This document shows, piece by piece, positions 13,199-22,452 of a stretch of DNA of 40,127 nt. Within the stretch, counting starts at the first letter, position 1; each line of letters starts with the position of its first letter. The translations under genes and the position numbers were made by a program. The DNA comes from Candidatus Stahliibacteriota bacterium (lineage in GTDB: Bacteria > Hydrothermota > Tepidihabitantia > SM23-42). The stretch lies in assembly GCA_030602565.1 (NCBI GenBank), contig JAUVZL010000023.1, positions 1-40,127 of the forward strand, read 5' to 3'. A model generated the notes under the pieces. That model was not told the DNA's origin. It did no database searches and saw nothing but the letters and a program-made list of their open reading frames with translations.

Positions 13199-13289
13199 AA
13201 AAAAGGTATGCCACCCTAAGGTGCTCTCGCACCCAAGGCACTCATACCTCCCCCAAGATAAAGTTTATACACAATTCGCTCCGTGTCAA
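13199..13289 (-). promoter_or_regulatory. Shared promoter and leader 1 with terminator-like hairpin
   Basis: On the minus strand: -35 TTGACA (13284-13289), 16-bp spacer, -10 TAAACT (13262-13267), then a leader with a 7-bp outer stem (AGGTATG / CATACCT, 13204-13249), an inner stem GGTGC / GCACC capped by GAGA (a GNRA loop), and six T after the outer stem. It has the form of an attenuator. Almost the same block lies at 21625-21710. The rest of 13290-13418 holds nothing clear. Confidence 0.65.
13216..13245 (-). CDS. Candidate 9-residue leader peptide MSALGARAP
   Basis: ATG to TAG inside leader 1, with GGGGGAGG just before the ATG (very short spacing). The second leader encodes MSALGAKAP; the two differ by one synonymous (TTG/CTG) and one conservative (AGA/AAA) codon change. 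The same changes are also neutral for the GNRA-capped hairpin, so it may be RNA structure rather than peptide that is conserved. Confidence 0.3.
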   Translation of the reverse strand: MSALGARAP

Positions 13290-13418
13290 GACACAATTTT
13301 TTCATACTGACCCCATATTTTGCAGGATATTCCCCAATTCCCTCTTGTTGAATCGAATGACCTTACCGTCATTTCTTATTGTTCTCTTAAAGACCTATCT
13401 CCATCAATAATATCTAAT

Positions 13419-20984: not shown

Positions 20985-21266
20985 CTATTTTTTCTTCTTT
21001 ATCAACCGTTTATATTTACGACCAAAGGTTTTCACAACAGCATGACGCAATTGTTTCCCGCCAAATCGACCATGTATCACACTTTTTTTGAGTACTCTTG
21101 CACCTATACTTTTTGTCATAATCCTTTTAGCCTTTGTTCTGTATTGTTGTGGTTTTCGTGATTGGGTCAGGATTTTAACAGTCAATGATTTAATTGTAAC
21201 GGTTTTATTTTTTGGTAGTCTTTTTGGGGTCGTTCTTTTCTTTTTTTGACTACAAACTGTCTTCAC
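20985..21266 (-). CDS. Small very basic protein (93 aa)
   Basis: It starts with a GTG whose G is also the last base of the upstream TAG stop (TAGTG), so translation is coupled. The sequence is Lys/Arg/Gln-rich (VCSQKKKRTTPKRLPKNKTV) with a C-terminal part HGRFGGKQLRHAVVKTFGRK. It resembles a nucleic-acid-binding peptide, with no known family. It is sandwiched between the 98-aa gene and the deoxyribosyltransferase-like gene, and could be an antitoxin, an RNA-binding partner or a substrate carrier. Confidence 0.65.
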   Translation of the reverse strand: MKTVCSQKKKRTTPKRLPKNKTVTIKSLTVKILTQSRKPQQYRTKAKRIMTKSIGARVLKKSVIHGRFGGKQLRHAVVKTFGRKYKRLIKKKK

Positions 21267-21562
21267 TACGCTTTTCTTCTCTTGGTCTTGGAAAGGTTAG
21301 TTACTGTAACATTCATCCCCTTCTTGCGCACTTGTTGTGTTGCTTTATTCATATCTTTTTGAGGAACTCTAAGGATTTTGTTCTTATTCCTTTGAGTTTT
21401 CAAACGAGACAACGCTTGATCTATCTTCTTCGGAGTGCCGCCTCTTTCAACTTCGATTGCATGATGACCGCGAATTGCATCAAGACGACGACCACGTGAA
21501 ATAGGAACTTCTTTACGAGCGGCTCTTCCTTTGCTACGTTTGTGTGATCTGCTTTCAGGCAT
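21266..21562 (-). CDS. Small basic protein of a recurring family (98 aa)
   Basis: It begins MPESRSHKRSKGRAARKEVP, then GRRLDAIRGHHAIEVERGGT, with a C-terminal half KILRVPQKDMNKATQQVRKK, MNVTVTNLSKTKRRKA. I recognise the pattern from small proteins of plasmids and islands (MPESxSHKRxK... with VPQxDMxKA... and a C-terminal NxxxTKRR), but their role is not known to me. A strong ribosome binding site (GAAAGGAGGTAATC) precedes the ATG. It is the first gene of a three-gene operon expressed from the shared leader 2. Confidence 0.7.
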   Translation of the reverse strand: MPESRSHKRSKGRAARKEVPISRGRRLDAIRGHHAIEVERGGTPKKIDQALSRLKTQRNKNKILRVPQKDMNKATQQVRKKGMNVTVTNLSKTKRRKA

Positions 21563-21624
21563 GATTACCTCCTTTCACAAATATTGTTTCTGTCATCATC
21601 ATCCATACCCTATATATAACAAAC

Positions 21625-21710
21625 AGGTATGCCACCCTAAGGTGCTTTCGCACCCAGGGCACTCATACCTTCCCCAAGATAAAGTCTATACACAATTCGC
21701 TCCTTGTCAA
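21625..21710 (-). promoter_or_regulatory. Shared promoter and leader 2 (MSALGAKAP frame)
   Basis: On the minus strand: TTGACA (21705-21710), 16-bp spacer, TAGACT (21683-21688), then the same leader as 13199-13289, with an outer stem AGGTATG / CATACCT (21625-21670) and an inner stem capped by GAAA. The 9-codon frame is at 21637-21666. Unlike leader 1 there is no T6 run after the stem. The leader continues ~60 nt to the ribosome binding site of the 21562 gene. Confidence 0.65.
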
Positions 21711-21713
21711 TAC

Positions 21714-21748
21714 CAATTTTACCCAAATCTTTGATTTGGGTAAAATTG
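21714..21748. promoter_or_regulatory. Perfect 16-bp-arm hairpin upstream of leader 2
   Basis: CAATTTTACCCAAATC pairs exactly with GATTTGGGTAAAATTG around a TTT loop. It lies immediately upstream of the -35 element. It may be an upstream terminator, an operator, or a member of the AAATC-TTT-GATTT hairpin family seen elsewhere in the window. Confidence 0.6.
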
Positions 21749-21949
21749 AGTACCCCTCACCTAGTTCAGCAGATGTATGGATACAACCGAATACATTTAT
21801 TGTGATGTCTACAAAAACCTCAGGCATGGCGCAAGCCAGAAGCAAAACAAGGTGTGGGGGATTAAATCTTCAGTTTGCAATTAAAACGTCCTATTTATCC
21901 TGCCTGTCCTCTGATATCCTGCCCCCTCCCCATCCCCGTTTCACCAAGT

Positions 21950-22104
21950 CTCCGATTCTTAGGAAAGATCGTGGGAAGTATGGTACGGTCGCACTGGTTG
22001 CGGTAGCCTGTAAGTTAATGCGGTTATTGTTTGCATTAGTACGTGATCAACGGTATTATGTAGCGGATTATACATATAGTAATGTTATATCGAGAGTAGC
22101 ATAG
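21950..22104 (+). pseudogene. C-terminal remnant of an IS110-like transposase
   Basis: The frame reading SPILRKDRGKYGTVALVAVA, then CKLMRLLFALVRDQRYY, resembles the conserved end of IS110/IS1111 transposases (pattern VALVAVxRKLLxxIxxxL). The RuvC-like N-terminal part is missing and upstream codons look unrelated, so this is a fragment. The structured stretch that follows sits where IS1111-group elements encode their bridge RNA. Confidence 0.4.
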
Positions 22105-22110
22105 ATGTTA

Positions 22111-22300
22111 GTGCTGTCAGTGGGGGAGTCACGAGGGGTCAAATAAAGGTGTTTCGTGAAGAAACAGCCTTGGTGGAAAGAGTCAATGATCCCCCACTGT
22201 TCGATGACCCGGATGAAGCACCGTATGGGTTTGTAAGCCCTGGAATAACCAGTGTCTGGTATCGAACTGCAGTGCTGTGGGGTTACCCACTGACAGTGAA
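22111..22300 (+). ncRNA. Inverted-repeat-rich segment, possible bridge-RNA relic
   Basis: The outer arms CTGTCAGTGGG (22114-22124) and CCCACTGACAG (22286-22296) are exact complements. Inside are CACTGTTCGAT (22195-22205) pairing imperfectly with ATCGAACTGCAGTG (22261-22274), AGGTGTTTC / GAAACAGCCT, GGGTTT / AAGCCC and CCAG / CTGG. CAGTGGGGG (22118-22126) can alternatively pair with CCCCCACTG (22191-22199). Such density exceeds the neighbouring debris. Being directly after an IS110-like end, it might be a bridge RNA or its remains. Confidence 0.35.
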
Positions 22301-22452
22301 TTGCTCGTTTACTAATATTTTTTTTAAAGGAGGCAAATGTGTAACTTAACCCTTGACTATATTAAACCAGGTTTGACCCCATTTCCCGCACAGCAGAATG
22401 GTCTGACTCCAAATTCCCCTATCGTAATAGTTAGTATAATAATACTTATGTG

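What the first reader, a model, noticed from the sequence alone, without database searches (positions are those of the whole stretch)
21950..22300. IS110-like remnant followed by a richly paired segment
Seen: a reading frame with the end of an IS110-type transposase is followed by a 190-bp stretch with an exact 11-bp outer pair, several inner hairpins and an alternative pairing. Known: IS1111-group elements encode a bridge RNA after the transposase. Inference: a bridge-RNA relic or a domesticated RNA.
Basis: inference. Interest (0 to 1): 0.5.

Follow-up and report, generated by a model that had tools for sequence, protein, structure and literature searches.

The report
Broken jumping gene with guide RNA
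This is the leftover right-hand part of a bacterial jumping gene whose RNA guide, which chooses the landing site, can still be read and still matches the DNA on both sides of it; it is a well-resolved new example of a known kind of element.

Summary
Window 21970-22104 is the last 44 codons of an IS110-family transposase, and 22112-22296 is the RNA-coding 3' non-coding region of the same element. A covariance model built only from four intact relatives of candidate phylum WOR-3 finds the window RNA at 92.3 bits, E 2.6e-21, its only hit in 40 kb. Across nine sequences 25 of 39 pairs show compensatory changes. Both loops read as bridge-RNA guides: in 13-14 elements the target loop matches the element's own flanks, and the donor loop its own ends, beyond partner shuffling. 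The window's two target guides match the DNA on either side of the remnant, and uninterrupted copies of that site occur elsewhere in the genome. The missing left end, predicted from the donor guide, was then found at three contig ends of a relative. The target is the end of a dispersed REP-like repeat. The left end and most of the transposase gene are gone, and no other family genome keeps the RNA (1 of 23). So it is a relic, not a domesticated RNA: a new member of a known kind.

The parts
21926..21967 (+). left half of the insertion target: dispersed repeat ending ...CCGATTCTTAGGAAAG
   Evidence: 10 further places in the genome; 8 of those 10 passed the filter, and all 8 run on into RTTTGACCCC-like sequence without interruption
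21962..21967 (+). GGAAAG, the stretch matched by the second target guide
21970..22104 (+). C-terminal fragment of an IS110-family transposase with its stop (TAG 22102-22104); left end and N-terminal part deleted
   Evidence: 114 of 135 bases identical to the C54 copy
22112..22296 (+). bridge (seek) RNA region, four-way junction
   Evidence: model hit 22112-22294, 92.3 bits, E 2.6e-21
22114..22119 (+). P0 5' strand (pairs with 22291-22296)
22120..22127 (+). P1 5' strand GTGGGGGA (pairs with 22190-22197; its GTGGG can alternatively pair with 22286-22290)
22135..22144 (+). target-binding loop, guide 1: GGGGTCAAAT = reverse complement of ATTTGACCCC (right flank)
   Evidence: 9-nt run with its own flank, 10-nt run with the flank of the C54 copy
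22146..22171 (+). hairpin H1 inside the target-binding loop
22175..22180 (+). target-binding loop, guide 2: GGAAAG, identical to the left flank
22190..22197 (+). P1 3' strand TCCCCCAC
22199..22209 (+). P2 5' strand (pairs with 22258-22267), encloses the donor-binding loop
   Evidence: in helix 5, 9 of 10 pairs have a change on both sides
22217..22221 (+). donor-binding loop, guide 1: AGCAC, predicts left end GTGCT
22247..22252 (+). donor-binding loop, guide 2: AACCAG, identical to the right end plus core
22258..22267 (+). P2 3' strand
22277..22290 (+). hairpin H3 GTGGG-gtta-CCCAC
22291..22296 (+). P0 3' strand TGACAG
22353..22368 (+). right end of the element TTGACTATATTAAACC
   Evidence: identical in the window, C54, C28 and G003 copies (18 of 18 with core); at contig ends in G017
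22369..22370 (+). core dinucleotide AG
   Evidence: AG follows the right end in 12 of 14 elements, TG in 2
22371..22380 (+). right half of the target GTTTGACCCC
   Evidence: target pattern at 88 places at up to 3 mismatches against 4 for the reversed pattern

Best explanation
The stretch is a decayed insertion of an IS110-family element with IS1111-like layout (transposase gene first, guide RNA behind it). When intact, the RNA downstream of tnp would bind the DEDD transposase. Its first loop reads both halves of the target site (GGAAAG on the left, ATTTGACCCC on the right) and its second loop reads the element's own two ends, so that the circular element is joined into that site. The target is the end of a dispersed REP-like repeat, so the genome held dozens of landing sites. 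In the window the insertion happened, then the left end and about the first 90% of tnp were deleted, leaving the target's left half, the last 44 codons, a nearly complete RNA, the right end and the target's right half. Shown by computation: homology, RNA structure, guide-flank matches, the target repeat, the predicted left end in a relative, no full transposase of this type found in the genome. Inferred: binding, circle formation and recombination chemistry (from the published IS621 and ISEc11 work), that the deletion came after insertion, and that the relic is inert.
For: Model R1 from four intact relatives, window excluded: window 22112-22294, 92.3 bits, E 2.6e-21, the only hit with E up to 1 in 40 kb; C54 copy 84.0 bits. 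Structure on nine sequences: 94.9% of cells paired, 25 of 39 pairs with two-sided changes, slid controls 38-52%; the window keeps 34 of the 35 pairs that have letters. Guide 1 against right flank, 14 elements: summed longest match 97, shuffled-partner mean 54.6, 0 of 200,000; 10 less redundant relatives without window and C54: 69 against 37.7, 1 of 200,000. Guide 2 against left flank, 13 relatives: 107 against 57.3, 0 of 200,000; donor guide 2 against right end, 14: 79 against 53.8, 0; donor guide 1 against left end, 13: 71 against 58.9, 6. The window guides match its own two flanks, and uninterrupted CCGATTCTTAGGAAAG-RTTTGACCCC-like sites exist in the genome. Left end predicted from AGCAC: the pattern hits G017 three times exactly, 5, 24 and 41 bases from contig ends, next to a REP-like left flank. 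The C28 copy interrupts a repeat whose uninterrupted form is on C35.
Against: No intact element of this type in the same genome: PF02371 finds only a different IS110 on C25 and the C54 fragment. Five of 14 elements (C54, L071, L074, L076, L077) match their right flank by only 4-5 nt, no better than some non-cognate flank. The donor guide 1 signal is largely between clades, and related elements share guide and flank, so shuffling overstates independence. Helix H2 (4 pairs) is absent from the window RNA. Segment borders for the guide tests were set by hand from the structure. Expression and protein binding could not be tested.
Confidence: 0.94

Rival explanations
1. The orphan RNA has been kept by the host for a use of its own (domesticated regulatory RNA).
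For: 34 of 35 model pairs with letters are intact in the window copy and guide 1 fits the repeat exactly; promoter-like matches in the 801-bp stretch are above shuffles (6 against 1.8), one of them at 22030-22059 ahead of the RNA.
Against: The RNA model hits 1 of 23 family genomes. Same-genus G003 keeps only the last part of a copy. Window against C54: RNA 153 of 185 identical, tnp fragment 114 of 135, so the RNA is not better kept than dead coding sequence. Differences in paired and unpaired columns are 8 of 74 and 21 of 106: mild, and expected from descent from active copies. No terminator-like site.
Confidence: 0.03
2. The relic is a spare guide or non-autonomous element that still works in trans with a transposase supplied by an active relative.
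For: RNA, right end, core and both target halves are present; a sister subfamily appears multi-copy in G017.
Against: The left end is missing at the left junction (TAGGAAAG-ATCGTGGG), so the relic itself could not be excised or circularised. No full transposase of the type was found in this genome.
Confidence: 0.025
3. The structure is unrelated to the IS (riboswitch, attenuator, other ncRNA, or chance).
For: Single-sequence folding alone is only moderately better than shuffled (z -2.67).
Against: No Rfam match at E up to 1 in four loci of this group, the window's among them; the same RNA lies behind intact transposases; the structure covaries and the loops match flanks.
Confidence: 0.005

Closest known systems
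IS1111-group elements with seekRNA (ISEc11, ISKpn4, ISPa11; Siddiquee et al. 2024, PMC11187229; outline and sections 6, 9, 12, 13 read)
   Same: RNA region downstream of tnp; the segment complementary to the top strand of the target lies 5' of the segment complementary to the bottom strand; subterminal inverted repeat (10 bp in the G017 subfamily); specific targets.
   Different: Transposase of 406-427 aa instead of 330-350; motif GL-L----SG instead of GL-P----S(T)G; the published dominant seekRNAs are 82-96 nt, here a structured region of about 185 nt.
IS110-family bridge RNA (IS621 and others; Durrant et al. 2024, PMC11208160; passages read)
   Same: Target-binding and donor-binding internal loops, each with two guide segments; DEDD recombinase.
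   Different: In IS621 the RNA lies in the left end, before the gene; here behind it.
IS elements that land in REP sequences (ISPa11, ISPpu9, ISPpu10 and others; Tobes and Pareja 2006, PMC1525189; abstract read)
   Same: The target is a dispersed repeat.
   Different: A different repeat; here the guide sequences that explain the choice are identified.
[quoted passage not shown] otherwise recalled)
   Same: Insertion into the ends of another mobile element.
   Different: The target here is a Y1-transposase/REP-like end.

Membership tests
IS110 family (broad) | DEDD transposase with PF01548 and PF02371 | tested here: met
   Relatives L069 (84.9 and 68.3 bits) and L074 (79.2 and 73.2 bits) are over the cut-offs; the hand-joined C54 peptide scores 24.5 bits to PF02371. 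The window's own 44 aa has no such hit and is placed by homology.
IS110 family (broad) | non-coding RNA with target and donor loops matching flanks and ends | tested here: met
IS110 family (broad) | circular intermediate and RNA-guided recombination | not testable with these tools
   needs bench work
IS1111 group | long non-coding region downstream of tnp | tested here: met
   window, C54 and 14 relative loci (L041, L069-L079, L085, L087) read
IS1111 group | top-strand guide 5' of bottom-strand guide | tested here: met
   set against PMC11187229 sections 9 and 12
IS1111 group | subterminal inverted repeats of 7-17 bp | tested here: inconclusive
   G017 subfamily: TAATATAGTC in the left end is the reverse complement of GACTATATTA in the right end, 10 bp (read). 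Over 11 relatives the best stretch is 5-9 of 9, better than letter shuffles (0 of 2000) but not pair-specific (55,185 of 100,000 partner shuffles as good). The window copy has lost its left end.
IS1111 group | transposase of 330-350 aa | tested here: not met
   427 aa (L069) and 406 aa (L074)
IS1111 group | GL-P----S(T)G motif | tested here: not met
   six aligned relatives: SG kept, L in place of P
Known Rfam family | match to a curated RNA family | tested here: not met
   0 matches at E up to 1 in 13,208 bases of four loci

The most novel reading that the evidence does not exclude
In this WOR-3 group the bridge RNA is built as a bistable four-way junction: the 5' strand GTGGG can close either the target-loop domain (P1) or a 9-11-bp outer helix with the 3' end, and the outer pairing is complete (9 of 9) in 8 of 9 sequences and 8 of 9 in the other. 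It could switch between a target-loaded and an unloaded form, a kind of control that I did not meet in the bridge-RNA passages I read. The strand that would switch hardly varies, so covariation neither supports nor excludes it.
Probability: 0.1. Interest if true: 0.5.

Novelty: new member of a known kind. Interest (0 to 1): 0.36.

Why it matters
It shows that target and donor guides of an IS110 relative from an uncultured phylum can be read from genome comparison alone, down to predicting an unseen left end, and that a broken copy still records where it landed. The group combines the IS1111 layout with a transposase of IS110 length, which bears on how the RNA came to lie at one end or the other. 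A target with 88 copies in the genome, at the ends of a repeat, would let such elements spread without hitting genes (inference).

Tried and rejected
Domestication: rejected on phyletic pattern and equal decay. Rfam: no match. Viral contigs: 36 candidate stretches, none a relative. Reading 21705-22391 as one composite or internally deleted element: the 197-bp segment 21705-21901 recurs next to a right-end remnant in G003, but the target's left half lies between that segment and the IS in the window, so it is outside the element; dropped. MAFFT alignments A2-A4 of all relatives misaligned the distant ones (L041 was cut wrongly in A2 and A3), so model R1 was built from the four closest and others were aligned through it. 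The first left-flank test used the wrong GCTATA in four loci (88 against 53.5, 0 of 200,000) and was repeated with a stated pattern rule. Subterminal repeat as a pair-specific signal: not found across relatives. RNA-guided one-ended insertion as the reason for the truncated left side: the retained bases at the left junction do not resemble the left end (my reading, no test).

Rows dropped: L041 and L073 from the right-flank test (contig end; masked N), L087 from the left-flank test (truncated tnp), L091 (RNA broken off). Of the 70 loci, 13 were used in the guide tests (L041 came instead); 33 were printed, whose output was cut in the middle, and re-printed or added 11; the others printed were remote or lacked this RNA by eye, and the rest were not read. 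Model R1 was run on 31 sources, with 16 matches at E up to 10.

Full report
What is there. The window is contig C46 of a 2.74-Mb draft genome. Named relatives of its phylum in the GTDB collection are titled candidate division WOR-3 or Stahlbacteria. At 21970-22104 a reading frame encodes the last 44 residues of an IS110-family transposase. A longer, frameshifted fragment lies on C54, and a right-end fragment on C28.

Intact relatives. No intact element of this type was found in the genome: PF02371 and PF01548 find one different IS110 on C25 and the C54 fragment. Of 147 genomes of the phylum 11 carry a relative of the L026 transposase at E 1e-20, and a wider scan gave 70 loci in named genomes. 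In the closest ones a structured region follows the stop codon directly. A covariance model from four of them (L069-L072), without the window, scores the window RNA at 92.3 bits, E 2.6e-21. In 31 sources it gave 16 matches: the four it was built from, the window, the C54 copy (84.0 bits), the C28 remnant (34.2), three GC-rich WOR-3 relatives (50.1-51.4) and, more weakly, six relatives from Deltaproteobacteria, Nitrospinae, Caldithrix, Nitrospiraceae, Tritonobacter and an unclassified bacterium (19.6-39.7). It missed L077. On nine sequences, 25 of 39 pairs have changes on both sides and 94.9% of cells are paired, against 38-52% when partners are slid. This alignment was fitted to the model's structure, so it leans towards it.

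How it reads its target. The first domain (P1, with hairpin H1) has two open strands. The 5' strand is the reverse complement of the DNA just right of the element, and the 3' strand equals the DNA just left of it. Summed longest matches are 97 for true partners against 54.6 for shuffled ones on the right (14 elements) and 107 against 57.3 on the left (13 elements), with 0 of 200,000 shuffles reaching either. Not every element is convincing alone: C54, L071, L074, L076 and L077 give 4-5 nt on the right. The second domain (P2) holds AGCAxx, complementary to the left end xxTGCT (71 against 58.9, 6 of 200,000), and a stretch equal to the right end plus core, such as AACCAG, AATTAG, ATCAG or ACAAG (79 against 53.8, 0 of 200,000). 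Related elements share both sides, so these shuffles are not fully independent. Guide 1 of the C54 copy has one change against the repeat, that of the window copy none.

The window copy in its site. Left of the remnant the sequence ends ...CCGATTCTTAGGAAAG, and right of it, after core AG, begins GTTTGACCCC. The left repeat was listed at 10 other places of the genome. Eight of them passed a 2-mismatch filter, and all eight run straight on into RTTTGACCCC-like sequence, three of them exactly. The second target guide GGAAAG and the first guide GGGGTCAAAT therefore spell the two halves of the very site the remnant sits in. The C28 copy likewise interrupts a short repeat whose uninterrupted form is on C35. 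The target pattern occurs 88 times at up to 3 mismatches, against 4 for the reversed pattern. It often occurs as outward-facing pairs, mostly 80-380 bp apart, and 2 of 13 Y1-transposase genes lie inside such a pair. I read it as the end of a REP/Y1-type repeat; that name is inference.

A prediction that came true. The window has no left end. Its donor guide AGCAC predicts GTGCT followed by the conserved ATA. The pattern GTGCTATAWTNTAG gave exact hits 0, 1, 0, 0 and 3 times in G000, G001, G002, G003 and G017. The three in G017 sit 24, 41 and 5 bases from contig ends, with left flank TTCGAAATTCGAG. Right-end contig ends of the same genome read CTTGACTATATTAAACC-AG-GGCTGACCCC, as expected where a multi-copy element breaks an assembly. 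Left end and right end share a 10-bp inverted repeat there. The body of that element was not in the bin.

Relic or tool of the host. The RNA model hits 1 of 23 family genomes. Window and C54 differ as much in the RNA (153 of 185 identical) as in the dead transposase end (114 of 135). The left end is gone. I conclude that it is inert, at most transcribed by chance.

Compared with what is known. IS1111 elements carry such an RNA behind the gene with the same guide order (PMC11187229, sections 6, 9, 12); IS110 proper mostly carries it in front (PMC11208160, passages). Insertion into REP sequences is known (PMC1525189, abstract). The transposase length and the GL-L----SG motif do not fit the IS1111 description, so I file it as IS110 family with IS1111-like layout. 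No paper of the held library contains both 'WOR-3' and 'IS110', and a broader search for orphan or domesticated bridge RNAs listed nothing relevant among the 10 of 77 shown. Papers outside that library were not searched.

Noticed in passing
22371-22380 and genome-wide; L169-L188: GAGATTTGACCCCA ends occur 88 times in the genome, often as inverted pairs with unrelated interiors (about 106-bp palindromic repeats, Y1-transposase genes, others). A repeat class with shared ends and varied content deserves its own study.
   Followed up: partly
21705-21901 and L025 2035-2226: A 197-bp segment left of the relic recurs (79%) beside a right-end remnant (95%) in same-genus genome G003, in a different gene neighbourhood; the unequal identities are unexplained.
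   Followed up: partly
21960-21970 and L185 (C28 copy): In two of the three copies in this genome the deletion that removed the left end starts within 0-3 bases of the insertion junction. GGAAAG microhomology may explain the window copy; otherwise unexplained.
   Followed up: no
21613-21720 and 13200-13300: Another dispersed repeat, 92% identical between the two places in the window and present on C53, C77 and C94.
   Followed up: no
G000:C25:8427-9413 (L014): Intact IS110 gene of a different type, also preceded by an AGATTTGACCCC site.
   Followed up: no
20985-21266 and 21266-21562, minus strand: Two small, very lysine/arginine-rich reading frames (93 and 98 aa) without a Pfam match.
   Followed up: no
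L113, L115, L122: A WOR-3 genome (LacPavin MAG_62_12) has three contigs that end inside the 5' part of a relative, suggesting a multi-copy element.
   Followed up: no
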